Shown here: in pieces, positions 7,439 to 18,861 of the stretch
Numbering within the stretch: position 1 is the first letter of the stretch
Layout of the letters: each line of letters begins with the position of its first letter
Origin: Olleya sp. Bg11-27
GTDB taxonomy: Bacteria > Bacteroidota > Bacteroidia > Flavobacteriales > Flavobacteriaceae
Reading direction: 5' to 3'
Assembly (NCBI RefSeq): GCF_002831645.1
Contig: NZ_CP025117.1
Location: forward strand, 1,991,514 to 2,055,513
Length of the DNA stretch: 64,000 nucleotides
Translations under genes and position numbers: made by a program
The notes under the pieces: model-generated
Told to the model about the DNA's origin: nothing
The model's input: only the letters and a program-made list of their open reading frames with translations
The model's database searches: none

Positions 7439-8071
7439 TTACATTTTACAATTTTCGCCATAAACGGCTTTCCAATATTTTGTATTTTCCGTAATAGCTT
7501 CAGCTAGTGCTTGTCGGACTTCATTTTCTAATACAGATTTGTTTTCTCCAAAAATAAAATGACCGTCATGCATTTGTTCTACTTTTGAGATGTAGTCCTT
7601 TAGAGACTCTTTTTCTTCATTCGTTTTTGGTTTGTTGTTTAAGTATTGCATGCCTTTGTGTACATTCCATTCGTCTACATACGCTTCGATATAAAGTTGT
7701 GAACTTTCTAAACTTACAGTGCCTTTTTGGGTCACGTAATATATCTGTTTTCTAAAACCATAAGGATAGATGTTTTTCATCATTCTATCTGCACTTGCCC
7801 AATAGGAATAGAAAATCAGCGTGTTATCTATAATTTTATAGGTTCCTAACTCAATGTTTTCACTACTACAATCACCATCACTTTCATATAGCGTATGCTG
7901 TAATAGTTTTTTATTGTTTCTGTATAATTCAATAAAGTCAATTTGCCGTTCTTCATCCACTGAAGTGGTTATAATTTCAAATTCAATCCCATTAATGACT
8001 TTCTTTTGCGTTTGAGACAAGCAAAAATTGAGACATAAAAAAGTTGTGATTAAAAATGTTATTTGTTTCAT
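7439..8071 (-). CDS. Hypothetical secreted protein, intact copy of a repeatedly duplicated cassette gene
   Basis: The 210-residue protein has a clear signal peptide (MKQITFLITTFLCLNFCLSQ, cleavage near residue 19) and a mature part with no recognised domain. A CSSE motif near residue 67 and a C-terminal Cys (ENCKM) could form a disulphide. It is the only intact member of a family whose 5' parts recur as decayed fragments at 10295-10459, 11396-11562, 16820-16967 and 17768-17885. The upstream leader begins with GTTAAACG, the start shared by those fragment cassettes. It is the last gene of the attC array; function unknown. Confidence 0.72.
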   Translation of the reverse strand: MKQITFLITTFLCLNFCLSQTQKKVINGIEFEIITTSVDEERQIDFIELYRNNKKLLQHTLYESDGDCSSENIELGTYKIIDNTLIFYSYWASADRMMKNIYPYGFRKQIYYVTQKGTVSLESSQLYIEAYVDEWNVHKGMQYLNNKPKTNEEKESLKDYISKVEQMHDGHFIFGENKSVLENEVRQALAEAITENTKYWKAVYGENCKM

Positions 8072-8120
8072 TTAAGCTTTTTTACTTTAATTTTGAATGG
8101 ATTAGATATTGGGGGTTTTC

Positions 8121-8257
8121 GTTTAACGGTTATGTATATGGAAAGTTGCGTGTTTGTGTGCGAGGATTTTCCGAAGGAAAATCAGATGCAAGCAAGCAAA
8201 GCAACTTACATTGGTTAAGCTAAAAATAGCAATTTTTTATATACGGTGTTGCCATTA
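8121..8257 (-). other. attC-like recombination site, 3' end of the 8264-8755 cassette
   Basis: Read on the minus strand, the site runs from an AAC box (ends TAATGGCAAC, plus 8248-8257) to GTTAAAC (plus 8121-8127). The arms form an imperfect palindrome: GTATATA/TATAC outer arms, AAGTTGC/GCAACTT middle arms (7 bp, exact) and an apical GATTTTCC-GAA-GGAAAATC hairpin. GTTAAAC matches the integron R' consensus GTTRRRY. The AAC box is the exact 10-bp reverse complement of the start of the same cassette (plus 8781-8790). This is classical attC organisation; cruciform folding is inferred. Confidence 0.78.
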
Positions 8258-8263
8258 GTATTT

Positions 8264-8755
8264 TTACTTTTTAGTTCGGACTATTTTCCTTTTAATTGTT
8301 TTTCGAAGAGGGAAATAAATTAACATTATAATTAAAGTCATAAAAAGAAACATTATTATTTCCGTTTTATTAATTCTATTTCCAACTTTTTTGTTATTGA
8401 CATAAATAATTCTTACCGATTCAGATTCTTTTGCAATCCATTTAGATTCTTTCTGAGTTTTTAATTGAAATAAAACATTGTCTCCAATCAAATATTTGGT
8501 ATCAACCTCTTCTTTAGCATTAAATACTTTTATTCCTGTCTCAATTTGATAAACTTTGTACGTATAATTTTCAACAGGATCTTGTCCTGATTTATACTCA
8601 ATATTTATTATTTCACCTTTTTCTAAATTATTCCAATTTTTTATGGTAAAAAAAAGGTGTGATGAGCTAAAATATAATAAGCTTAAAAAAATGAGTATGG
8701 TAATTCCAGATATTAATAAAACAAAGAATTTATATATTATTTTTTTTATCAACAT
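8264..8755 (-). CDS. Hypothetical two-helix membrane protein (cassette gene)
   Basis: The 163-residue protein has a transmembrane helix at about residues 9-32 and another at about 131-150, with a roughly 95-residue beta-rich extracytoplasmic part between and a Lys/Arg-rich C-terminus (TIKRKIVRTKK). The architecture resembles DUF3592-type proteins, but no signature clinches it. It fills a single cassette: the stop codon is 7 bp before the AAC box of its attC site and the leader after the upstream GTT is only 33 bp. No clear promoter box is seen in the leader. Function unknown. Confidence 0.65.
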   Translation of the reverse strand: MLIKKIIYKFFVLLISGITILIFLSLLYFSSSHLFFTIKNWNNLEKGEIINIEYKSGQDPVENYTYKVYQIETGIKVFNAKEEVDTKYLIGDNVLFQLKTQKESKWIAKESESVRIIYVNNKKVGNRINKTEIIMFLFMTLIIMLIYFPLRKTIKRKIVRTKK

Positions 8756-8783
8756 TTGAATTTAAGAGTGAGTACTATATTAA

Positions 8784-8980
8784 TGGCAACGTTAAATATA
8801 TGGCAAGCTGGGCAGAAAATAAGCAATTACTTTCGTTTTATTACTTAGCTAAATATAAATATTTTGATTTTATCTTTTTTGTTGAAAATGTCAAATTTTA
8901 TATTTGGCGGACATTGTTAATATTCACAGACCTTTAGGTTTAGCACAAACTCCCTATGTTTTTTATACCTTGTTATGCGC
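8784..8980 (-). other. attC-like recombination site, long form B, end of HNH cassette
   Basis: On the minus strand the site starts with GCGCATAAC (plus 8972-8980), 5 bp after the HNH stop codon, and ends at the GTT at plus 8788-8790. The AAC box pairs with the cassette start GTTGTGCGC (plus 10140-10148) at 8 of 9 positions. The interior of about 190 bp is closely similar to the site at 11610-11800 (shared blocks TATATTTAGC, CTTTCGTTT and CATAGGG). Two copies of one attC subtype thus end two unrelated genes. Confidence 0.72.
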
Positions 8981-8985
8981 TGCAT

Positions 8986-10114
8986 TTATTTAATATTTCT
9001 GAGATTGTTTCTATGGGCAATAAAAGGCATCATTCTCTTCATTAGTTCATTAAACATTGAATTTAGTATTTTCTCGTTAATAATGGTTCCTTCTGGTAAT
9101 AATCCTAATGAATTATCAATTGCATTTGAAATAATCTCGTGTATTTGATGTTTATCTTGTTGCTTGTTGGCAATAGTCAATATTCTTGCATAACGTTTCT
9201 TTATTTTTTCAAATGGTTTTGCATCTTTATTTATAAAAAGGTCAATTAGTTCATTTCTAGATAATTTTAAACAAGTTTTGTTTTCTTTCACTTCGTAATT
9301 ATGTACATTAAAAATGTAGTCAAAGTCAATATCAATTCCATTATATGAGTCATTTAAACAGATAATAAAATTATGTAGATTGAACAATTCTACATAAGCA
9401 TATAAAACCTTCTCTTTTGAATCACCCACGACTTTCAAAACATGAGACGCTTCATCTTTATCTGGTATATAAATATCTTTATCTGGATAATGCATCCAGA
9501 CTATATCTAATTCTTTATTACCTTCCAAGTAAGGGAGTAAATGTTTAATATTTACTCTGTCACCTCCTTTGTGAATATAAAAGTTAATTGCAGTCTTTGC
9601 TATTGACTTAAAAGCTTCTTTTCCTCCAATATGAGAGTTTACTTGAAAAGAATCATTTACATAAAAACTTTTTTGTTCAGCAGTATCAAGTATTTTATCG
9701 ACTTCAATTGTAGGATGCTTCTTTTTTAGACCTAGTAGAGTTATTTTTAACTCTTTTCGGTTTTTAGCATTAATCTTCAATCTAGATTTAGTACTATCCT
9801 CTTGAGTTATTTCATAGTTAGTTTTCGCTTGAACAGGAGACCCCCCCATAATCAAGATAATATTTTTCCCCAGTCGAAGTACGTGTTGTTCTTATTGGTT
9901 GAGGAACTCCATGATGTCTTTTAACCATCAATAGATTAGTAATGACATTAGTTGTTCTTGCTAATTCACAATCAAATTTATCTCCAAATATTGAGTTACA
10001 TTTTTTGCATAAAAGGTTTTTCGATTTTAATCTACCTCCGCATGCATTAATTATTATATGTTCCTCTGAAGAATTTTTATCATCAATAATATCTTCACAT
10101 CTATAACATTTCAT
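8986..10114 (-). pseudogene. HNH endonuclease-domain protein, frameshifted at a G7 run (cassette gene)
   Basis: Two overlapping frames form one protein. The N-terminal part (start ATG 10114) has CYRCED, SEEHIIINACGG and LCKKCNSIFGDKFD: two CxxC zinc pairs with an EH pair between, an HNH_5-like nuclease. It shifts out of frame at seven Gs (plus 9841-9847), and the rest of the protein (about 280 residues, VQAKTNYEIT onward) continues in the other frame to 8986. Removing one G gives a continuous protein of about 375 residues. The break may be real, phase-variable or a sequencing error. An alternative TTG at 10147 lies inside the attC site and is unlikely. A nuclease cassette could act in defence. 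Confidence 0.75.
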
Positions 10115-10141
10115 TGTCTTATTGGGGATTTGGGTAGTTGC

Positions 10142-10197
10142 GCACAACGTATAGCGAATGAGATTCCGTTTTAATGAATTTTATTCGAAGTTAAACG
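10142..10197 (-). other. attC-like recombination site, short form A (copy 1)
   Basis: On the minus strand: CGTTTAAC (plus 10190-10197), spacer TT, arm CGAATAAAATT, 11-base loop, arm AATCTCATTCG, CTATAC, then GTT (plus 10146-10148). It forms a nearly perfect hairpin of about 55 bp, the size of a classical 59-base element. CGTTTAAC is the exact complement of the start of its own cassette (plus 10504-10511). Very similar copies occur at 11258, 14697, 16715 and 17657, with a degenerate one at 18680. Confidence 0.78.
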
Positions 10198-10294
10198 AAT
10201 TTAGTTTAAAAAAATGACAAAGTCAAGTTACTATTTTGTATTTAGATTAGCCTCTGTAATCACGATCAAGCTCCTAAAGTGTGTAGTATGATAT

Positions 10295-10459
10295 TTTTTT
10301 ATTATTTCTGAATAATTCAATAAAGTCAATTTGCCGTTCTTCATCCACTGAAGTGGTTATAATTTCAAATTCAATCCCATTAATGACTTTCTTTTGCGTT
10401 TGAGACAAGCAAAAATTGAGACATAAAAAAGTTGTGATTAAAAATGTTATTTGTTTCAT
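10295..10459 (-). pseudogene. 5' fragment of the repeated signal-peptide cassette gene
   Basis: The first 53 or so codons are nearly identical to those of the intact gene at 7439-8071 (MKQITFLITT... to IDFIELFRNNKK), then similarity stops and the frame ends after a few unrelated codons. The upstream leader up to 10503 also matches. The rest of the gene is missing and the fragment joins directly to a sequence leading into attC form A. It is a cassette with an internal deletion; expression would give only a signal peptide and about 40 residues. Confidence 0.8.
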
Positions 10460-10504
10460 TTAAGCTTTTTTACTTTAATTTTGAATGGATTAGATATTGG
10501 GGGC

Positions 10505-10639
10505 GTTTAACGGTCTCGTATAACCGTCAGTTACGAGTTAAATTAGTAATAATTTTTGGTTTAGTACAGGCTTTAGCCATTCCGCGTGGATTCGGACGTA
10601 GTCGAATCCGCCGTAATTGCGCTTATACATTGTTGTGTG
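10505..10639 (-). other. attC-like recombination site with extrahelical base, end of the 10648-11235 cassette
   Basis: On the minus strand CACACAAC (plus 10632-10639) and GTTAAAC (plus 10505-10511) bound a palindrome with outer arms GTATAA/TTATAC. The apical hairpin pairs GGATTCG-AC with GT-CGAATCC; one extra G remains unpaired on one arm, as do the extrahelical bases that give integron attC sites their strand polarity. CACACAAC exactly complements the cassette start GTTGTGTG (plus 11257-11264). The stop codon of the cassette gene lies 9 bp from the AAC box. Confidence 0.8.
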
Positions 10640-10647
10640 TAGTGCTT

Positions 10648-11235
10648 TTATTTCAAATTCCATTGTTTCAATATCTTATCAACTTTACTTTTTTCAAATC
10701 CATACATAGAACGATTAGGCTCAAAGTCAATTAATAAATCCTCTCCATTTTTCATATGAGCAAGATGTCCATATATTTCTTTACTCCACCAGTGAGTTGA
10801 AACTTCCAACTCCTCGTATTCGGCTAATTCTGAATTCGGATTGATATATGTATCGTATTCTAAAGTGATTTCGTATTTCCAAATCCAGTAACTTTCGGTA
10901 AAGTAGATTATTTTGCTTTTATGATAGGGTATCGATGTGTCTTTATTTCTGTTAGTCCAATATTGACAATACCTTTTGTCTTCGAGAAACTTATATTCAG
11001 AGGTCGTTCTCCAAGTACTCGGAAAACACATTACTCCTGCTATCGGTGGTTGTAAAGCAATACTGTCAAGAGTCCAATTTTCAGTGAGTGGTTTTATTCC
11101 TAATTCTATCCTTTTTTCATTAAAGTCGACTCCGTAATCCTTAGAGATGGAATTTGAAACTGTTAAAGAAATGAATGAATAAACAAATAAAACTCCTAAA
11201 ATTACAATGATAGTATTTCTAATTTTCTTTGTCAT
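10648..11235 (-). CDS. Hypothetical membrane-anchored protein (cassette gene)
   Basis: The frame is open to a GTG at 11259, but that GTG falls in the attC-derived end of the cassette; ATG 11235 (MTKKIRNTI) is preferred and gives 195 residues. A transmembrane helix lies at about residues 6-25. The mature part is rich in aromatic residues, with WTNRNKD, TESYWIWKYEIT and STHWWSKEIYGH, and has no domain I recognise. It fills one cassette bounded by the sites at 10505-10639 and 11258-11313. Topology suggests a periplasmic or surface-facing domain; function unknown. Confidence 0.65.
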   Translation of the reverse strand: MTKKIRNTIIVILGVLFVYSFISLTVSNSISKDYGVDFNEKRIELGIKPLTENWTLDSIALQPPIAGVMCFPSTWRTTSEYKFLEDKRYCQYWTNRNKDTSIPYHKSKIIYFTESYWIWKYEITLEYDTYINPNSELAEYEELEVSTHWWSKEIYGHLAHMKNGEDLLIDFEPNRSMYGFEKSKVDKILKQWNLK

Positions 11236-11257
11236 TTCAAAAGTTTGATTGCATTTC

Positions 11258-11313
11258 ACACAACGTATAACGAATAAGATTCCGTTTTAAAGAATTTTAT
11301 TCGAAGTTAAACG
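11258..11313 (-). other. attC-like recombination site, short form A (copy 2)
   Basis: Same hairpin as at 10142-10197: CGTTTAAC (plus 11306-11313), arms CGAATAAAATT and AATCTTATTCG, then GTT (plus 11262-11264). CGTTTAAC is identical to the complement of its own cassette start (plus 11609-11616). The adjacent bases GTTGTGTG belong to the next cassette, as expected for a site whose crossover falls after the first G of GTT. Confidence 0.78.
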
Positions 11314-11395
11314 AAGTTAGTTTAAAAAAATGACAAAGTCAAGTTGCTATTTTGTATTTAGATTAGCCTCTGTAATCACCATCAAGTGTGGTATG

Positions 11396-11562
11396 ATATT
11401 TTTTTATTGTTTCTGTATCATTCAAGAAAGTCAGTTTGCTATTCTTAATCAATTAAAGTAGAAACAATTTTAAGCGTTATGCTGCTAATGACCACTTTTG
11501 CGTTTGAGACAAGCAAAAATTGAGACATAAAATAGATTTGATTAAAATGTTATTTGTTTCAT
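11396..11562 (-). pseudogene. Decayed fragment of the repeated signal-peptide cassette gene
   Basis: The leader and first codons (ATG at 11562) match the intact gene at 8071, but indels break the frame within 20 codons and divergence is higher than in the 10295-10459 copy. Similarity ends at the same place, about 55 codons in, so both probably derive from one deletion cassette that was duplicated, or from the same deletion. No functional product is expected. The 616-bp stretch 11260-11876 holds only this fragment, two attC sites and the left end of the IS. Confidence 0.72.
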
Positions 11563-11800
11563 TTAAGCTTTTGCTTTAATTTTGAATGGATTAGATATTG
11601 GGGGTTTTCGTTTAACGTCTCGTATAAGAAACGTAGGGCAGTTGATAAGCACTTTCGTTTCGGTTTATTACTTAGCTAAATATAAATATTTTGCTTTTAT
11701 TTTTTCTACTATAAATGCCAAATTTTATATTTAGCGGACTTTGTTAATAAGCACAGAACTTTCGGTTTAGCAGAAACGCCCTATGTTTTTTATACATTGT

Positions 11801-13523
11801 GCCTGTTGCACAACTCTGTTGATAAAGTTAGAGCAATGGTTTGTTATTGACAAGATATTATTTGTAAATTACTGGTATGCAAGGAAAAAAGACCTATCAA
11901 GAACAGTTGTTTACTCATTTTCTGTTGAGCGAACGTATTCCCGAACACAATTTCTACCGACGCCTTAAATCGGTATTGGATTTAGAGTATCTCTATAAAC
12001 TTACAGCGCCTTATTATGGGACTAGTGGTCAAAAAAGTATTGACCCTGTGGTGTTTTTTAAACTGTGTTTGGTAGGATATCTAGAAAACATAATAACTGA
12101 TCGTAAGTTGATACAACATAGTAGTATGCGCTTAGATATTTTGTTTTTTATAGGTTATGATTTAGAAGATGAATTACCATGGCATTCAACAATAAGTCGT
12201 ACTCGTAAACTTTTTCCAGAATCTGTTTTCGAAACTGTATTTACTAAAGTATTAGAGCTTTGTATCTTAAAAGGCATGGTCAGTGGTCATACGCAAACGA
12301 TAGATTCTGCACCTATAAAAGCAAATGCTTCTATGGATACTTTAGAGCTAAAAGTTCCTGAAGCGGATCTAGCCTCTCATTTAGAAAAAGTAAGACATAT
12401 TAGTGCTCGAGATAAAGCGGCTTTTCGACAAAGTAAAACAAACAAAGCAAATATATCCGATAAGGTTATTAGTGCTACCAGTCAAGAACTAAGCGCTATA
12501 AAGAACCGAAATAAAAAATGGGCAAAAGACCAAGACCAACGCCCCGGAGCAGGAGCTAAAGATAGTCGTTATACCAGTAATAAGACGCATTACAGTCCAA
12601 CCGATCCAGACGCAAGAATTAGTGTAAAGCCAGGTAAGGCGCGAAAACTGAATTACATGAGCCAGTTAAGTGTGGACACAGGTCATCATGTGATTACGGA
12701 TATTAAAGCTTACCATGCAGACAAACGCGACAATCAATACCTTCCAGATATTGTAGGACGCTTACGTTCCAGATTAAATTTATTTGGCTTGCTTTGGCGC
12801 AACTGCGTCGCAGATACTGGTTATAGTAGCGGAGAGAATTATGCTTTTTTAGAACAGATAAATTTAGTAAGTTTCATTCCGCCGCATGGCACTTATAAAG
12901 GCGGTCCAGATGGGTTTGTTCACGATTTAGATCAAGACCACTATGTCTGTCCAGAAGGTGAGATTATTCCTTTTAAAAAAGTCTTTAACGACTACAAGAC
13001 AGGAAGTTTGAAAAAGGAATATCGCGGGAGTACTTATCAATGTAGAGATTGTCCAATAAAAAAGAGTTGTTTAGGTAAAACCGCAAAAGAGAAAAAGTTT
13101 TCAGTGACCTATTTTAAAGCAGAATACGAGCGTAATATTGCACGTGTAGAGAGTAATCGTGGTCGTTATATGAAAGGTAAGCGTCAAAGCACTGTAGAAC
13201 CTGTTTTTGGTACACTGACTCAGTTTATGGGGTTAAGAAAAATAAACACCATAGGTATTAAACAGGCCAATAAGGTTATGCATCTGTCTGCAATAGCTTA
13301 CAACCTTAAAAAATATTTAAAGTTTGTACAAAAACGAACAAAAAGTGAAGGAAAAGCACTTGGTGTTTTGCTTTTTGAAATAATGGCACTTTACAAGGCT
13401 ATAAACTTCCATTTAAGTGTATCAAAATTAAGGTAAATCTTAGTAAGTATTAAAAATTGAGCCTCTTAAAAAGGCTTATTTTGCTTATTCTATTAGAAAA
13501 TTATGGGGTTGTGCAACGGTTAC
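11801..13523 (+). mobile_element. IS1182-like insertion sequence, about 1.72 kb
   Basis: The element carries one transposase gene and ends with short inverted repeats sharing the core GTTGCACAAC (plus 11804-11813 on the left, reverse complement near 13509-13518 on the right). The target CATTGT is duplicated at 11795-11800 and 13524-13529. Exact ends are uncertain by a few bases because the outermost bases do not pair perfectly. It is inserted inside an attC-like site and is the only plus-strand gene in the array. Confidence 0.75.
11877..13436 (+). CDS. IS1182 family transposase
   Basis: The 519-residue protein looks full length. The N-terminal 130 residues (YYGTSGQKSIDPVVFFKLCLVGYLENI, DELPWHSTISRTRKLFP) are the DUF772 domain of IS1182/IS5-type transposases. 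A DDE nuclease core follows (TIDSAPIKANASMD, then VADTGYSSGENYAFLE), and a Cys cluster (YQCRDCPIKKSC) precedes the C-terminal catalytic-Glu region VESNRGRYMKGKRQSTVEPVFGTL. Such transposases cut and paste the element. The frame is intact with no premature stop, so the element may still be active. A short in-frame upstream alternative start is not needed. Confidence 0.92.
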   Translation: MQGKKTYQEQLFTHFLLSERIPEHNFYRRLKSVLDLEYLYKLTAPYYGTSGQKSIDPVVFFKLCLVGYLENIITDRKLIQHSSMRLDILFFIGYDLEDELPWHSTISRTRKLFPESVFETVFTKVLELCILKGMVSGHTQTIDSAPIKANASMDTLELKVPEADLASHLEKVRHISARDKAAFRQSKTNKANISDKVISATSQELSAIKNRNKKWAKDQDQRPGAGAKDSRYTSNKTHYSPTDPDARISVKPGKARKLNYMSQLSVDTGHHVITDIKAYHADKRDNQYLPDIVGRLRSRLNLFGLLWRNCVADTGYSSGENYAFLEQINLVSFIPPHGTYKGGPDGFVHDLDQDHYVCPEGEIIPFKKVFNDYKTGSLKKEYRGSTYQCRDCPIKKSCLGKTAKEKKFSVTYFKAEYERNIARVESNRGRYMKGKRQSTVEPVFGTLTQFMGLRKINTIGIKQANKVMHLSAIAYNLKKYLKFVQKRTKSEGKALGVLLFEIMALYKAINFHLSVSKLR

Positions 13524-13538
13524 CATTGTTACCCACAG

Positions 13539-14690
13539 TTACTTATTCTTTTTAGTTGGTCTCGAACTAGCACCAGCTTTTATCTTTTCATCAAGTACAA
13601 GAATTACAGTTTTTTTCAAGTCTTCATAGTTGAAATCTTCTTCAAATCCATATCTAAAAGTTGAGTGTGTTCCTCCTTTGTCCATTCCAAGTACATATTT
13701 CGGCCCACCTAATTCAACAGAGATTGGCGAATTTTCTGTTTGAATTCGAAATTCCGTTTCTCCTTTATCATTTACTACATAAAAAAGATGTTTGTAGTAG
13801 AGTTCTCCTTCTTTAACCGCAAATCTTTCAAATGCCTGTATTAACTTATCATTCCAATCGAACTGGTCAAAACAAAACATCTCTTTGAGGTTGTCCTTTA
13901 AGACTCCTTGCTCATATGCCCGATAAAGTTTCGCTCTTAAAGGTTTGGCTTTTTCATATTCTTTTTTACCATAGTAAACTTGAATTAGTTTTGCGTAGGA
14001 ATGAAAGTCATTTGGTGCTAATTCAATCAATTCTTTAAGTGCTATTTCCGATTTATTATAATCTTTATTTAGCAATTCATAAAGTCCAATATTGTAAAGT
14101 GCGTTTATATAAGAATCGGATTCTTTTGAGATGGTTGCTTTTGATTTGTAAAATGCCTCTAAGGCTTTTTCTGGTTGATTTAGTTCTGCATAGATTTGTG
14201 GAATCATAGTAAAAGGTCTGTCTATCGGCTCATTTTTTTCTGTAGCTGCGATATAAGCAGGAAGTGCCTTTTCATATTTCTCTTGACTTATATAAGAATC
14301 TCCTAATCCAGTAAAATAATTTGTGTTAGTTGAATCAAGTTCGATTGCCTTATTGAAAGACTCAATTGCTTTATCAAACTGTCCCATATAATTTAAAGTC
14401 ATTCCTTTAATGAAATATGTGTCAGGGTCAGTTTTGTCTTTTTTAATTGACAAATCCATTAGTTTAAGTACATTATTATCGTCAGCTTTCATATAGTAAG
14501 CCATTCCAACATAATAAATTGCTTTAGCTGGATATTCACTTGCCTTTTCGGAATGCTCGGAAATAATCAAATCATATTTCTCTTTTCCGTAAGCTTTTTC
14601 TAATTCAGTCGTAATCTGTTCTTGAGCATAATTACTTAAGCTTAAAAGACAAATTATAAATGTTAGCAGGATATTTTTCATAATTTTCAT
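13539..14690 (-). CDS. TPR-repeat exported protein (cassette gene)
   Basis: The 383-residue protein has a signal peptide (MKIMKNILLTFIICLLSL, cleavage near NYAQ). Residues about 30-240 contain tandem 34-residue tetratricopeptide repeats (PDTYFIKGMTLNYMGQFDKA, NYFTGLGDSYISQEKYEKAL, PQIYAELNQPEKALEAF, YALIQVYYGKKEYEKA-type units), followed by a non-repeat beta-rich C-terminal domain of about 110 residues. TPRs mediate protein-protein contacts; the partner is unknown. The ATG at 14690 follows the cassette-start GTT by 10 bp; ATG 14681 is an alternative. The stop codon abuts the interrupted attC site. Confidence 0.8.
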   Translation of the reverse strand: MKIMKNILLTFIICLLSLSNYAQEQITTELEKAYGKEKYDLIISEHSEKASEYPAKAIYYVGMAYYMKADDNNVLKLMDLSIKKDKTDPDTYFIKGMTLNYMGQFDKAIESFNKAIELDSTNTNYFTGLGDSYISQEKYEKALPAYIAATEKNEPIDRPFTMIPQIYAELNQPEKALEAFYKSKATISKESDSYINALYNIGLYELLNKDYNKSEIALKELIELAPNDFHSYAKLIQVYYGKKEYEKAKPLRAKLYRAYEQGVLKDNLKEMFCFDQFDWNDKLIQAFERFAVKEGELYYKHLFYVVNDKGETEFRIQTENSPISVELGGPKYVLGMDKGGTHSTFRYGFEEDFNYEDLKKTVILVLDEKIKAGASSRPTKKNK

Positions 14691-14696
14691 AATTGT

Positions 14697-14752
14697 GGGT
14701 AACGTATAGCGAATAAGATTCCGTTTTAATGAATTTTATTCGAAGTTAGTTT
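14697..14752 (-). other. attC-like recombination site, form A with a shortened AAC arm
   Basis: The hairpin arms and GTT end are as in the other form A copies, but the sequence before the arm reads AAACTAACTTCG instead of AAACTAACTTCGTTTAACTTCG. A deletion between the direct repeats AACTTCG removed the usual CGTTTAAC box and left CTAAC in its place. The remaining AAC may still serve, but it no longer matches any cassette start I can see upstream. Confidence 0.65.
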
Positions 14753-15036
14753 AAAAAAATGACAAAGTCAAGGTGTTATTCATTGTTATTAAATACTTGT
14801 AAAATAGAAGGAAACGATTTAATTTACTGTGCAATCTAAGTTAGATACTGTTATAGTAAGGCTAGTCATAGGAAGCACGAAACGTATCGTTTTTCTTAGT
14901 GTTTATTCCGTAACGAGCCTTATTTAATTAAACTAGCTAAAAAGTCTATTAATACAACAAGCTTATAATAAAACATAGTAAAAAACGACAAATTTATTGG
15001 GTAAATTAAGATTGTAAATGTTGTTATTTGATAGCG
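14753..15036. other. Gene-free spacer in the cassette array
   Basis: About 284 bp with no credible ORF. On the plus strand it contains a small inverted repeat, ACGAAACG-tat-CGTTTTTC, and nothing else recognisable. On the minus strand GGCATAAC stands at the start of the gap right behind the CPBP gene (plus 15036-15043) and may be the AAC end of a decayed attC site, but no stem partner is convincing. Confidence 0.35.
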
Positions 15037-15699
15037 TTATGCCAAACCGTAATAGATACAAATTAAGGCAAACGTGTCAAAAAAACCGTGTACTGCAACA
15101 ATAAACCATAAATCGTATTTACGTAAGTAGAATATCAGAGCTAAGAGCGCCCCAACAAAACCTGCAACAAGTTGTCCTGTAATGCCTTGATAGCTATGCA
15201 TAAAACCGAAAAAACAACCAAATAGGATAATATTAATAGCAATACTTACTTTGCTTTCTCCAAAGAACTTTACAAATTGGCGCATAAAATAACCGCGAAA
15301 GATAATTTCTTCGCCAAATCCCGCAGTAGCCCACACTACTCCTAAAGCAATTAAGCAGGCTGGAAGATTTCCCTTCAATTGCTCAAAACTTGAATAATCA
15401 ATAGGAACTCCTGTAAGTTTTGTCATTCCAGGAACCACAACAAAGACATAAAAAGCGAACAGTCCTAGTGCGACTATTGGAGCAAGTACGAGGATGTTTT
15501 TGAATGTAAATTTTTTACGTTGAAATCCAAGTGCTGAAAATGGTTTTCCTTTGTACTCTATATAATTCGCTATAATGATTACTATAGCAATAATAACATT
15601 TTCTATATAATTTATACGGATTGGTCCAAACCATATAAACCAGATGATTGCAATGGTAATTAATGGAATTAAGGTTTGGCGTAAGTTAATTTTGTTCAT
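15037..15699 (-). CDS. CPBP family intramembrane metalloprotease
   Basis: The 220-residue protein has six or so transmembrane helices. The CPBP/Abi signature is visible: EEIIFRGYF at residues 130-138 (EExxxR), FGFMHSY around 168 and VHGFFDTF around 204, supplying the Glu, Arg and His residues of the active site. Relatives include CAAX-prenyl proteases and bacteriocin self-immunity proteins. It lies 123 bp behind the LytTR-type gene on the same strand with no attC site between, so the two probably share one cassette. Substrate unknown. Confidence 0.85.
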   Translation of the reverse strand: MNKINLRQTLIPLITIAIIWFIWFGPIRINYIENVIIAIVIIIANYIEYKGKPFSALGFQRKKFTFKNILVLAPIVALGLFAFYVFVVVPGMTKLTGVPIDYSSFEQLKGNLPACLIALGVVWATAGFGEEIIFRGYFMRQFVKFFGESKVSIAINIILFGCFFGFMHSYQGITGQLVAGFVGALLALIFYLRKYDLWFIVAVHGFFDTFALICIYYGLA

Positions 15700-15822
15700 T
15701 TTTTTAGTTTTAATTTCTAAGCGAAATAATGAACAAAATCTCTGAAAGCCCTTTTAAATGCTTTTGTTTTTACTGAATGGTCATAAATTTATATCTGAAT
15801 AGTCGGTAGTTTTTGATTTCTT

Positions 15823-16659
15823 TTATTGAATCCAACTCATAAATGCTTTTCGTTTGTAACGACTGATATTAATTAGGGCAATTGCATCATTTTTAATGGA
15901 AGCTTTTAACCGAATACTTAACTTCCCATTTTCAATCTTTTCAATTTGGTCTACAGCATCTTTATGAATGATAATTTGTCGATTGGCTCTAAAAAACAAT
16001 TGATCGTTTATTTTTTCTTCAAGTTCATTCAGTGTAAAATCGGTGTTAATTGTGGTGCCATCCTTTTGAATAGTATACACAATTTTGTTTTCGCTGTAAA
16101 AGCATGCAATATTTTCATAGGTCAGCTTGGTTGTTTTTGCACCGCTTTCAATAGTGATTTCCGCATCTTTTATAGATAATGTATACAAACTGTATAGGTC
16201 TTGGGCATACAAGATAACTATGAAAATAAAACTCAATAATAAGGTGATTACCAAGCCTATTAATAAATAATAGAACACGGTCTGTTCACCTGTAATTATA
16301 TTTAAAATTATATTTACGGGGATATACATTATTGTAATGTACCCTAGAGTGGAAAGCATAAACCATAATATGGTACTAACTTCTATCTTTTTGGAAAAGT
16401 ACTTTTTTTTATAAAATTTAAAATTAAGATTCGTTATAATTCCAATAAGAATAAATAAAACAATAGTTGACAAAAAACCTTCTATCGGGAATCTGTACGC
16501 TTCACTATCTATAAAATTATCGTGCGTGGCTAAATGATTGACCACTAATGAAAAAGTTGTTAATATAATGACTTTCTTAAACCAACGCCATGCAGCGTTG
16601 CTGGTACATGTCTGCCATACTGTTTTTAATGTATTCTTGATTGGTTGTGTAATACTCAT
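15823..16659 (-). CDS. Membrane-bound LytTR-domain transcriptional regulator
   Basis: The 278-residue protein has four transmembrane helices (roughly residues 25-45, 60-80, 92-118 and 130-160) and a C-terminal LytTR DNA-binding domain (residues about 170-278; LTYENIACFYSENKIVYTI, FFRANRQIIIHKDAVDQI, INISRYKRKAF). There is no receiver domain, so it probably senses a membrane signal directly. It is upstream of the CPBP protease gene, a pairing consistent with a small signalling or self-immunity module. Its leader begins at the form A attC site 16715-16770. Confidence 0.83.
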   Translation of the reverse strand: MSITQPIKNTLKTVWQTCTSNAAWRWFKKVIILTTFSLVVNHLATHDNFIDSEAYRFPIEGFLSTIVLFILIGIITNLNFKFYKKKYFSKKIEVSTILWFMLSTLGYITIMYIPVNIILNIITGEQTVFYYLLIGLVITLLLSFIFIVILYAQDLYSLYTLSIKDAEITIESGAKTTKLTYENIACFYSENKIVYTIQKDGTTINTDFTLNELEEKINDQLFFRANRQIIIHKDAVDQIEKIENGKLSIRLKASIKNDAIALINISRYKRKAFMSWIQ

Positions 16660-16714
16660 TAATTAGAAGCTTTTTTTTAGTCAAGCTATTTCTGGAAGAT
16701 GTTTTTACCATTGT

Positions 16715-16770
16715 GGTTACCGTGCAACAAATAAGATTCCGTTTTAAAGAATTTTATTCGAAGTTAAACC
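16715..16770 (-). other. attC-like recombination site, form A (divergent copy)
   Basis: Arms CGAATAAAATT and AATCTTATT are kept, preceded by GGTTTAAC (plus 16763-16770). The GTT end differs from the main copies: the arm is followed by TGTTGCACGGTAACC rather than CTATACGTT. The copy at 17657-17712 shares TGTTGCAC and then has GTTAGC. The crossover triplet here may be mutated (GGT) or lie at the earlier GTT; the site may be inactive. Confidence 0.55.
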
Positions 16771-16819
16771 TATTTAGTTTAAAAAAAAATGAAAAAGTCA
16801 AGTTACTATCCAGTCTGCG

Positions 16820-16967
16820 GATTAGCTGCTGCAACTTCCATCGCTCTCATATACCGTATGCTGTAATATTTTAAATTCAAATCCTATTAATGACTTTCTT
16901 TTGCGTTTGAGACAAGCAAAACTTAATAAATGAAAAGGCTGTGATTAATAGGGGGGATTTGTTTCAT
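16820..16967 (-). pseudogene. Decayed copy of the repeated signal-peptide cassette gene
   Basis: From the ATG at 16967 the sequence keeps MKQI, then a run of Cs and internal deletions remove most of the signal peptide and the middle. Recognisable pieces are the codons for SQTQKKVINGIEF-like sequence and, 40 bp later, LQHT-YESDG-CSS, corresponding to residues 57-70 of the intact protein. It therefore extends further 3' than the fragments at 10295 and 11396. No product is expected. The 364-bp gap 16660-17024 holds only this and the attC site. Confidence 0.68.
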
Positions 16968-17024
16968 TCTAGTTTTTTGTTTTATATCGATTAGATGGTG
17001 GGGGATGTCATGTTTTTTCTTTGC

Positions 17025-17647
17025 TTAATTGCATAAACTTCTGGATACGTAGCTTTTGTTTCCTTTTGAATTTATATAATAACAACCACCTCTAGGGCCT
17101 CTATAGTAACTTCTTGAATTCTGATATTTCTTATTTTTATATGAAGAGTTATTTGATTTGGTACTTTTTAGTGATGAGTTGTAAGAGGGGGAGTTACTAT
17201 TAATTCCATTACTGAGTTTTCTTTCTTTTTCAATAGATTTGGTAAACTCAGATATTGAACTGTCATTTTTAATCCAAATTTCATTCATATAGCCACAAAG
17301 CCTGCCTTGACATACTGCAAAGTAACTTTCGTTATACTCCAAAATTATTACTTTTTTGTCCTCCTTTAAAACTATAATTATGTCAGCAAATAAACTTGGG
17401 TCTTTTTTTAATTTAGCTCCTTTACTTGCAACTGCAATTAGTGAAGAATCTTTGATTTTTTCTAATATTTTTTTTGAATTTAATTGCGCTATTTTTAAAT
17501 CAATACTGTTTATTGAGTCAGTCAAGTTTTTAATCTCAGATTCAATTTTTTTCTTTGATTTTTTAGCCCATCTATTTCTTTATCCGTTTGTGAATAAGTA
17601 AAGAAGGAAATTAAAATAGTCAAGTATGTTAGGTAGAAGTGCTTCAT
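17025..17647 (-). pseudogene. SH3-like exported protein, frameshifted at an A6 run
   Basis: From ATG 17647, 10 bp after a GTTAGC cassette start, the frame encodes a signal peptide (MKHFYLTYLTILISFFTYSQ) and a coiled-coil start, then goes out of frame at six As (plus 17551-17556 area). One extra A rejoins it to the frame ending at 17025, giving about 207 residues: coiled coil (KKIESEIKNLTDSINSIDLK), an SH3b-like domain (KKVIILEYNESYFAVCQGRLCGYM) and a C-terminal GPRGGCYYINSKGNKSYV motif resembling the small basic GxRGGxYY adaptor repeat. The fault may be genuine, slippage-tolerant or an assembly error. A TTG at 17525 could start the shorter frame. Confidence 0.68.
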
Positions 17648-17656
17648 TTAAATTTT

Positions 17657-17712
17657 TGCTAACGTGCAACAAATAAGATTCCGTTTTAAATAGTTTTATT
17701 CGAAGTTAAACG
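17657..17712 (-). other. attC-like recombination site, short form A (copy 5)
   Basis: CGTTTAAC (plus 17705-17712), arm CGAATAAAACT, loop, arm AATCTTATTTG, TTGCAC and then GTTAGC (plus 17658-17663). The left part of the stem has one extra mismatch against the copies at 10142 and 11258. The GTT is immediately followed by the short leader of the SH3-like gene, so the position relative to the next cassette is as expected. Confidence 0.68.
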
Positions 17713-17767
17713 AAGTTAGTTTAAAAAAAAATAAAAAAGTCAAGTTACTATCCAGTCTGCGGATTAA

Positions 17768-17885
17768 CTGCTGCAACTTCCATCGCTCTCATATACCGTA
17801 TGCTGTAATATTTTAAATTCAATCCTATTAATGACTTTCTTTTGCGTTTGAGACAAGCAAAACTTAATAAATGAAAAGGTTGTAA
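17768..17885 (-). pseudogene. Remnant of the repeated signal-peptide cassette gene, 5' end lost
   Basis: This copy is almost identical to the fragment at 16820-16967 (same CSS, ESDG and SQTQKK remnants and the same internal deletion), but similarity stops near 17885, before the start codon. A 98-codon frame passing through it (17748-18044) has no plausible product. The 367-bp gap 17648-18015 contains only this remnant, the attC site and about 130 bp of unrecognised sequence on the lipoprotein side. Confidence 0.62.
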
Positions 17886-18015
17886 TCTACACTTCGTTTT
17901 GGTTTGGCGCTTTTCCAAAATATCAGAACTGACGTATATCAGGCTCGCGTTTACGGTCGTGTGAGACGTGTATTTCTGTTGTTTTAATTGGAGTCGTCTA
18001 TTCGATTGGCAATGG

Positions 18016-18441
18016 TTATTTGCATTCACATGCATATTCTCCATCTCCTTCTATTAACATCCAACTTTCATTTTTATTAAAATTTTCACTATTAATTGGC
18101 CAAGATGTTAGGTGTATTACGCACTCTTTATCTTTTGGTATGCCAGACTTCCAATTATAATGTGCGACTTTTATTGTGTCCTTAATATGTAAACCACTTG
18201 TATTCATTAAGATATCGATAACTTGTATTGTTGGATATAAATATTTGTTTCCGCTATCAAATTCAATTAGCTTTCCTTTTATAATAGCTTTAGATTTTGA
18301 ATATTTTACTGAGTCTATTTTACTGTTATCTTGCAATGTCTTTTCTTGAACCTGAGTTATTGCTACTTTATTATGCTTATCTTTTGATTTTACACAGCTA
18401 AAAAACACTAATATGACAAATAATGCAGATAAATATTTCAT
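18016..18441 (-). CDS. Hypothetical lipoprotein (cassette region)
   Basis: The 141-residue protein begins with a lipoprotein signal (MKYLSALFVILVFFSC, lipobox FFSC, lipidated Cys16) followed by a Lys-rich linker. The mature domain (KAIIKGKLIEFDSGNKYLYPTIQVID, GLHIKDTIKVAHYNW, ECVIHLTSWP) is beta-rich and ends with a Cys pair, CECK. No family is recognised. It lies 6 bp downstream of the 18448-18672 ORF, so the two form a pair. It is probably attached to the outer membrane or its inner leaflet; function unknown. Confidence 0.65.
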   Translation of the reverse strand: MKYLSALFVILVFFSCVKSKDKHNKVAITQVQEKTLQDNSKIDSVKYSKSKAIIKGKLIEFDSGNKYLYPTIQVIDILMNTSGLHIKDTIKVAHYNWKSGIPKDKECVIHLTSWPINSENFNKNESWMLIEGDGEYACECK

Positions 18442-18447
18442 GATTTA

Positions 18448-18672
18448 TTACTGTTTTGGAGCTTCTCTAAAAGACCAACCTCCACTTTTAAATGATTTTG
18501 TTTTTCCTTGACCCAATTTTAATAATCTGACATGTCCAGAAACTAAATTTTTAGGTTTTATCCTTTTCTTTTTTATCTGAATTCTATATATCTGTCCAAT
18601 CCCATAAATTATAACCATAATTACTTGTGACAAAGTATCTTCATATTTTAGTCCTATGACTTCATATATCAT
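18448..18672 (-). CDS. Small hypothetical protein
   Basis: A 74-residue ORF with ATG at 18672, placed 11 bp after the degenerate attC site and 6 bp before the lipoprotein gene, which is the expected place for a first cassette gene. It has a hydrophobic stretch at about residues 16-28, a basic patch (IQIKKKRIKPKN) and a C-terminal GKTKSFKSGGWSFREAP segment. No family is recognised. Coding status is plausible but not certain because of its shortness. Confidence 0.45.
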   Translation of the reverse strand: MIYEVIGLKYEDTLSQVIMVIIYGIGQIYRIQIKKKRIKPKNLVSGHVRLLKLGQGKTKSFKSGGWSFREAPKQ

Positions 18673-18679
18673 AATTATT

Positions 18680-18734
18680 GCAGGCGTATAACAAATAAGG
18701 TTCTGTTTTAATGAATTTTATACGAAGTGAAATG
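18680..18734 (-). other. Degenerate attC-like site, form A (outermost copy)
   Basis: Overall sequence and hairpin are those of form A, but the two recombination triplets have changed: TTTCAC stands for TTTAAC (plus 18727-18732) and TATACGCC for TATACGTT (plus 18683-18690). The arms also carry substitutions (CGTATAAAATT / AACCTTATTTG). It is the upstream-most copy on the minus strand and marks the upstream edge of the array. Recombination activity is unlikely. Confidence 0.55.
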
Positions 18735-18861
18735 AAGTTAGTTTAAAAAAATGACAACGTCAAGTTACGATTTCGTTTCGCTAAGCATTTGATTAATAGA
18801 AGGAACGACTGAGTTTTGCAAGGAGTTAAAAACTATCTATTGTTTCTAGGATATAATGCAA

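What the first reader, a model, noticed from the sequence alone, without database searches (positions are those of the whole stretch)
8121..18734. Integron-like gene-cassette array without a visible integrase in a flavobacterial chromosome
Seen: ten attC-like palindromes on one strand, each behind a short minus-strand gene or gene remnant, in a region where every gene but the IS transposase points the same way. Sites fall into a short form A (six copies, about 55 bp, the size of a classical 59-base element) and longer forms of about 135-195 bp. Established: integron cassettes have an attC site bounded by AAC and GTT triplets just behind the stop codon, and integrase-less arrays (CALINs) are known. 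Inferred: this is such an array; integrons are rarely reported in Bacteroidota, so the site class may be new. No tyrosine recombinase was found in the window.
Basis: partly seen in the sequence, partly recalled or inferred. Interest (0 to 1): 0.88.

Follow-up and report, generated by a model that had tools for sequence, protein, structure and literature searches.

The report
Bacteroidota integrons with a different integrase
A row of small, movable gene packets in a flavobacterial chromosome belongs to a gene-capture system that is laid out like an integron but is paired with a different kind of recombinase enzyme, so searches that look for the usual integrase may miss it.

Summary
The array is real: ten attC-like sites (six short, four long) on the minus strand. 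Cassettes start GTT+N6 and end N6+AAC; the two ends are complementary within a cassette, not within an integrated site: 81 of 100 cassettes in related loci, 1.3% in controls, as expected of units moving as circles. A covariance model built only from other genomes finds two window sites. The genome holds at least 77 such sites (E<=0.01) in about 14 clusters. The CALIN reading holds, but classical IntI is absent over cut-off in 149 genomes, host included. Instead a Xer/IntI-like recombinase without the IntI insert heads such arrays: in 14 loci 87 of 87 sites lie downstream on its strand, none upstream. In 18 of 27 loci the complement of the first site's end starts 33-119 bp after its stop codon, an attI-like junction. 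Relatives of it occur in 148 of 295 genomes of the class. The host's copy is disrupted and about 0.9 Mb away, beside another array. Cassette order and content differ at this locus in a sister species. Recombination itself is untested.

The parts
18680..18736 (-). form A site 1, degenerate core (GCC instead of GTT); start of the array, shared with the sister species
   Evidence: alignment; L148 match
18016..18672 (-). cassette genes (74 aa and 141 aa, unknown); matched at a different rank in the G005 array (window 17996-18544)
17655..17712 (-). form A attC-like site 2 (R'' CGTTTAAC, next core GTTAGCA)
17025..17647 (-). cassette gene(s) 41 aa and 166 aa; no closing attC seen
16714..16770 (-). 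form A attC-like site 3
15037..16659 (-). cassette with LytTR-domain protein (278 aa) and CAAX protease-like protein (220 aa); shared with G005
   Evidence: Pfam
14694..14750 (-). form A attC-like site 4; hairpin beats shuffles
   Evidence: weak model match
13539..14690 (-). cassette gene, TPR protein (383 aa); ends GTTACCCAC/GTGGGTAAC complementary 9 of 9
11801..13523 (+). IS (transposase domains PF13751/PF05598; IS1182-like by recall) inserted in the core of a long attC, target repeat CATTGT at 11795-11800 and 13524-13529
11602..11800 (-). long attC-like site (form B), cut by the IS; its R'' half lies at 13528-13536
   Evidence: weak R1 hit (E 0.0155)
11256..11313 (-). form A attC-like site 5; hairpin beats shuffles
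   Evidence: weak model match
11256..11613 (-). repeat cassette: remnant of the 7439-8071 gene, promoter-like TTGAC...TAACTTCG, form A site; further copies end at form A 2, 3 and 6
   Evidence: repeats; BLAST
10648..11259 (-). cassette gene (203 aa, unknown); ends GTTGTGTGA/ACACACAAC 8 of 9
10501..10642 (-). long attC-like site (form C)
   Evidence: R2 76.7 bits; covariation
10140..10201 (-). form A attC-like site 6
8986..10147 (-). cassette gene(s): HNH endonuclease-like frame 9818-10147 and overlapping frame 8986-9855; ends GTTGTGCGC/GCGCATAAC 8 of 9
8780..8990 (-). long attC-like site (form B)
   Evidence: pattern match; reading; not found by R2
8264..8755 (-). cassette gene (163 aa, unknown); ends GTTGCCATT/AATGGCAAC complementary 9 of 9
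8117..8258 (-). long attC-like site (form D)
   Evidence: R2 96.5 bits
7439..8071 (-). last gene of the array (210 aa, signal peptide-like start), apparent parent of the repeat cassette; conserved at the array end in G005

Best explanation
The window array is a stranded cassette array (CALIN-like) of a Bacteroidota integron-like system that does not use IntI. A tyrosine recombinase of about 345-440 aa (IntI-type core-binding domain, Xer-like catalytic domain without the IntI insert, about 100 extra N-terminal residues) sits at the head of such arrays. An attI-like site lies just after its stop codon, and cassettes follow on the same strand, each one or a few genes plus an attC-like site. Proposed working: the bottom strand of an attC folds into a hairpin (AAC box, 3- and 6-nt spacers, GTATA box); the recombinase exchanges strands at the GTT core; a cassette leaves as a circle whose ends restore a full attC, and re-enters at attI or another attC. 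In this genome the only family gene found is disrupted (C1:1108092-1109319), so the window array would now be moved only by a recombinase from elsewhere. Shown: anatomy, end complementarity, recombinase-array linkage, changed cassette order and content between two species, and one cassette shared by distant genomes. Inferred: that this recombinase catalyses the reaction, single-strand use, and the exact cut.
For: Linkage: at E<=0.01, 87 of 87 R1 sites lie downstream on the recombinase's strand and 0 upstream in 14 loci (23 of them were seeds of R1); in 36 named-genome loci 49 downstream on its strand and 2 upstream; 42 loci of other recombinases 2 sites in all; 14 XerC/XerD-like background loci 2 sites, both in one locus. 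attI: the complement of the first site's R'' occurs within 260 bp after the stop codon in 19 of 27 loci (18 perfect), against 10 of 486 upstream windows. Circular units: 81 of 100 cassettes match at 6 of 6 variable end positions, controls 1.3%, 0 of 5000 permutations; own genome 40 of 66 sites, controls 37 of 1277. Structure: 12 of 23 pairs have changes on both sides; the bottom strand folds better in 120 of 130 sites. Co-occurrence: sites in 78 of 81 genomes with the recombinase and 18 of 68 without. Mobility: the G005 locus has shared cassettes in another order plus private ones; a 151-aa cassette gene is 97% identical over 636 bp between Algoriphagus ornithinivorans and relative G065, the identity starting 6 bp before the GTT core. 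No IntI: 0 of 149 over cut-off; insert absent in 34 of 34 members.
Against: No recombination assay exists here. Of 68 genomes without a detected recombinase 18 still carry sites, and 3 of 81 with it have none. Of the 17 named loci with at least 5 kb downstream, 6 have no model site downstream; R1 is built from relatives of the host and may miss others. Form A hairpins are weak. In the shared 151-aa cassette the identity stops about 50 bp before the closing AAC, and the Algoriphagus copy shows no clear closing attC. The recombinase in this genome is disrupted. Co-occurrence is not corrected for phylogeny.
Confidence: 0.84

Rival explanations
1. An ordinary CALIN: cassettes left behind by a lost classical IntI integron, with no role for the neighbouring recombinase family.
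For: CALINs are common and classical IntI occurs elsewhere in the phylum (84 of 296 genomes over cut-off).
Against: IntI over cut-off in 0 of 149 genomes although 96 of these 149 have sites; sites are fixed downstream of another recombinase with an attI-like junction.
Confidence: 0.06
2. The sites are moved by XerC/XerD or another host recombinase, and the linked family only maintains or regulates the locus.
For: Sites occur in 18 of 68 genomes without the family.
Against: 14 XerC/XerD-like loci have 2 sites in 224 kb, both in one locus; the orientation and attI-like start go with the family.
Confidence: 0.07
3. The palindromes are REP- or MITE-like transposed repeats or terminators behind genes, not recombination sites.
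For: They lie behind genes and are partly palindromic.
Against: Ends are complementary within the gene unit (81 of 100 full matches) and not within the integrated site (mean 2.44 of 6, control 2.19); whole units differ in order between species.
Confidence: 0.01
4. The alternation of repeat unit and unique gene in this window arose by tandem duplication and homologous recombination of the 7439-8071 gene region rather than by site-specific recombination.
For: Repeat unit copies are homologous, partly deleted, and in the stretches searched almost confined to this locus and its G005 counterpart.
Against: Unique cassettes between them have their own matched ends and long attC sites; cassette content differs between the two species.
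Confidence: 0.06

Closest known systems
Classical integrons (IntI integrase, attI, attC cassettes; TIGR02249)
   Same: recombinase, attI and cassette layout; AAC...GTT bounded sites; cassettes in one orientation with self-complementary ends; bottom-strand hairpin preference; changed order and content between strains
   Different: recombinase lacks the ~41-residue IntI insert and scores 195-213 bits against a 265-bit cut-off (four members); attI lies 3' of the recombinase gene and cassettes run in its direction (classical layout, as I recall, is mostly divergent); core mostly GTTR then G or T; spacers 3 and 5-6 nt; about 100 extra N-terminal residues
CALIN elements (attC clusters lacking IntI)
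   Same: the window array by itself is one: several attC-like sites, no recombinase beside them
   Different: a linked recombinase exists for this site class, only it is not IntI
XerA / XerD-type simple tyrosine recombinases
   Different: N-terminal extension, IntI-type core-binding domain (PF13495 best of the two CB families), linkage to cassette arrays
Integron-like subgroup of Smyshlyaev et al. 2021 (PMC8138268, passages seen)
   Different: the passages shown describe no cassette arrays for insert-less members; whether this family lies in that subgroup was not tested

Membership tests
Integron (IntI type) | integrase with the IntI-specific additional domain | tested here: not met
   0 of 149 genomes over the TIGR02249 cut-off; distance KDR to HxxRH 63-65 in 34 of 34 family members against 105-106 in the 7 IntI-type rows that could be measured
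Integron (IntI type) | attI site next to the integrase gene | tested here: met
   attI-like cassette start in 19 of 27 loci, 18 perfect, against 10 of 486 control windows; 8 loci without
Integron (IntI type) | cassette attC bounded by AAC and GTT with imperfect hairpin | tested here: met
   form A weak
Integron (IntI type) | core site GTTRRRY (recalled consensus) | tested here: not met
   6 of 100 cassette starts
Integron (IntI type) | cassettes as circular units, ends complementary | tested here: met
   81 of 100; circles themselves not observed
[quoted passage not shown]
   needs an assay
CALIN | two or more attC sites less than 4 kb apart (definition in PMC9668308, passage) and no IntI beside them | tested here: met
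   sites 8117-8258 and 10501-10642 by R2; no recombinase motif in the window
CALIN | attC sites recognised by the published IntegronFinder covariance model | not testable with these tools
   model not available here
XerC/XerD dimer resolution recombinases | score over the XerC or XerD equivalog cut-off | tested here: not met
   171-200 bits against 335.15 and 329.6 for four family members; the host's XerD reaches 336.9 for XerD, its XerC-like protein 303.8 for XerC

The most novel reading that the evidence does not exclude
Bacteroidia carry a second lineage of integrons: complete recombinase-attI-attC cassette systems run by a Xer-like recombinase that is not IntI and lies outside the IntI clade, present in about half of the sampled genomes of the class, so that many 'integrase-less' arrays of this class are in fact products of an unrecognised integrase.
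Probability: 0.72. Interest if true: 0.93.

Novelty: new variant of a known kind. Interest (0 to 1): 0.88.

Why it matters
The IntI insert is described as necessary for cassette recombination (PMC9668308 and PMC8138268, passages). A working cassette system without it would mean that folded-site gene capture evolved more than once, or before the insert, and would open a direct comparison of how a recombinase reads a hairpin. It would also add a large, little-seen route of gene exchange in Bacteroidota. Reviews list Bacteroidota among phyla with integrons (PMC8618304, passage), but IntegronFinder 2.0 names complete ones only in Chlorobi, Ignavibacteriae and Salinibacter ruber within the Bacteroidetes/Chlorobi group (PMC9024848, passage).

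Tried and rejected
Rfam at gathering thresholds gave no match in the window and no tRNA or tmRNA was found. Classical IntI was searched first and rejected for this group; matches in all 14 control genomes at E<=10 show that low TIGR02249 scores mean any Xer-like protein. A first script for cassette ends chose the wrong AAC in A-rich stretches (32 of 73 full matches) and was replaced by a position rule fixed by the model alone, which dropped 10 of 140 sites without AAC or GTT at the expected place. For one search I kept R1 hits at E<=0.01 and dropped weaker opposite-strand hits that overlap a stronger one. For one search I used the rows down to E 0.0008; of the 77-78 own-genome rows, 66 had an AAC at the expected place. 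In one search locus L008 was dropped for want of an AAC; L113, not counted as a family member, is among the 27. In one search two IntI rows were out of frame and were corrected for the tree. R1 has two window sites among its 25 seeds, so R2 was built without them. The tree (quick method) keeps the 14 IntI rows as one clade (SH-aLRT 100) but does not settle whether the family is IntI's sister; the family label needs three changes: L098 and L104 fall apart from the rest and three rows that I had labelled 'other' (L090, L105, L107) fall among them. The N-terminal extension of four members has no Pfam match and was barely tested by the fold search. The XerC/XerD-like control loci were picked from the 183-200-bit background hits and not classified one by one.

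Literature: ten full-text searches in an open-licence library without bioRxiv listed no paper that I recognised as describing such a system; six papers were opened as passages only (PMC8618304, PMC9668308, PMC9024848, PMC2426708, PMC8138268, PMC4184897). The original IntegronFinder survey (Cury et al. 2016, recalled) was not seen; the In0 elements that it is said to have found in Bacteroidetes (PMC9024848, passage) might be such recombinases.
Full report
OBSERVATION. The minus strand of the region was read in gene orientation. In the long sites the grammar is N6-AAC, three bases, GTATA box, variable stem and loop, TATAC box, five or six bases, GTT-N6. Form A follows the same 3/6 spacing with an 11-bp imperfect stem. 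No tyrosine recombinase motif is in the window's frames of 150 aa or more. A covariance model from 23 sites of other genomes (R2) finds two of the long window sites with E 4e-18 and 5e-14. With filters off, form A sites 5, 4 and 6 appear at E 0.035, 0.051 and 0.34 and sites 1-3 not at all, and 2 of 6 fold better than shuffles as DNA, so form A is the weakest part of the case.

CASSETTE ENDS. Each of four unique cassettes with an intact closing site begins with GTT plus bases complementary, at 8 or 9 of 9 positions, to the bases ending in the AAC of its own closing site (by eye). This is what remains when a unit is cut out as a circle and inserted between the halves of another site. On 100 cassettes bounded by two model sites in recombinase loci, 81 match at all six variable positions; starts paired with ends of other cassettes match fully in 1.3%; the two halves of one integrated site match 2.44 of 6 on average in 80 pairs, near the control mean of 2.19; 0 of 5000 permutations reach the observed mean. 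In this genome 40 of 66 usable sites have a perfect partner 200-3500 bp upstream on the same strand, against 37 of 1277 with swapped ends; 3 sites have one when looking downstream.

THE RECOMBINASE. TIGR02249 gives only sub-threshold matches in the host. One lies in a disrupted gene at C1:1108092-1109319 (two overlapping frames, L008) that is followed at once by another array with the same site grammar; a sequencing error is not excluded. Relatives' homologues were taken with 20 kb (one 16 kb) in 13 loci. Sites lie downstream and on the recombinase's strand in all 14 loci: 87 of 87 at E<=0.01, none upstream in 127,656 bp; 23 of these sites were seeds of the model, found by a pattern scan of both strands of the whole loci. 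Among 36 named-genome loci that I counted as family members out of the 80, 49 sites are downstream on the same strand and 2 upstream (both L104); of the 17 with at least 5 kb downstream, 11 have downstream sites. Controls: 42 other recombinase loci carry 2 sites and 14 XerC/XerD-like loci carry 2, both in L156. The complement of the first site's R'' starts 33-128 bp after the stop codon in 19 of 27 loci, 18 of them perfect (33-119 bp), against 10 of 486 upstream windows. Two attI-like types recur by eye: ends like CATATAACNA-GTT, and a short palindrome followed by an end like CAATT-GTTG.

DISTRIBUTION. With a threshold of 218 bits that I set in the gap above the background (about 206 bits), the family is in 81 of 149 genomes (counted). 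R1 sites at E<=0.01 are in 78 of these 81 and in 18 of the 68 others (Fisher p 1e-20, not corrected for phylogeny). At class level matches at E<=1e-66 occur in 148 of 295 genomes; whether all of these head arrays was not tested. Classical IntI is over cut-off in 84 of 296 phylum genomes; of the 86 genomes listed with E<=1e-45 one is labelled same class, the rest same phylum. In the host R1 lists 87 matches at E<=1, 77 of them at E<=0.01, with only 150 of 4010 candidates scored, so a lower bound. Named genomes with a relative include Zunongwangia, Mesonia, Algibacter, Winogradskyella, Seonamhaeicola, Flavobacterium, Algoriphagus and Cyclobacterium.

MOBILITY. The sister species G005 has the same locus with flanks 86-91% identical. 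Three units are shared (window 17996-18544, 14990-16946 and the last gene), and the first two stand in the opposite order; by eye about five units are private to this genome and about six to G005. The repeat unit alternates with unique cassettes in both. Among the 100 cassettes, one with a 151-aa gene is 97% identical over 636 bp between L026 (relative G065) and Algoriphagus ornithinivorans (L081, Cyclobacteriaceae). The flanks of 300 bp show no similarity, and the identity starts 6 bp before the GTT core; at the other end it stops about 50 bp before the closing AAC, and the Algoriphagus copy shows no clear closing attC. One L092 cassette has two further cross-genome matches (80 and 83%) with unrelated flanks.

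HOW IT PROBABLY WORKS. The bottom strand of a site folds better than the top in 120 of 130 sites (RNA parameters). Of 23 consensus pairs 12 have changes on both sides, and two positions are G-T wobbles in all 25 sites, which would be A-C mismatches on the other strand. I infer bottom-strand recognition as in IntI systems. The exact cut within GTT, the single-stranded intermediate and the identity of the catalyst are inference. The repeat unit may serve as a promoter-bearing cassette: it carries TTGAC...TAACTTCG, similar to the Bacteroidota promoter pattern that I recall, ahead of the next gene; this is untested. Why it alternates with unique cassettes is unexplained.

VERDICT. As a member of the IntI integrons the system fails two tested features (the insert and GTTRRRY), so I do not file it as one; as something that works like an integron the case is strong. 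Ten searches of an open library that lacks preprints and most subscription journals listed no description of it.

Noticed in passing
window 11801-13523; L184-L194: All 11 (near) full-length copies of this IS in the genome (4 at 98-100%, 7 at 68% identity) lie, by eye, in the core of attC-like sites in one orientation relative to the site; 8 of 11 have the same 6-bp repeat C-N3-GT on both sides, L188, L191 and L194 do not. It looks like an IS that targets these sites, comparable to the IS1111-attC group (recalled).
   Followed up: partly
L026 and L081:13987-14621: A 151-aa cassette gene shared at 97% DNA identity between relative G065 and Algoriphagus ornithinivorans, the identity starting 6 bp before the cassette core.
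   Followed up: yes
window 9818-10147 and 8986-9855: HNH-endonuclease-like cassette gene in two overlapping frames near a run of C on the plus strand (9841-9847), perhaps a frameshift; described only.
   Followed up: no
L113, L114, L116: Open frames of 676-720 aa that end in a recombinase of this kind; a longer N-terminal part or a read-through of the upstream frame.
   Followed up: no
   Followed up: no
window 7439-8071 and copies at 10274-10459, 11258-11613, 16720-16990, 17660-17900: A repeat cassette derived from the last gene alternates with unique cassettes here and in G005; in the stretches searched it occurs otherwise only in L183 and weakly in L164.
   Followed up: partly
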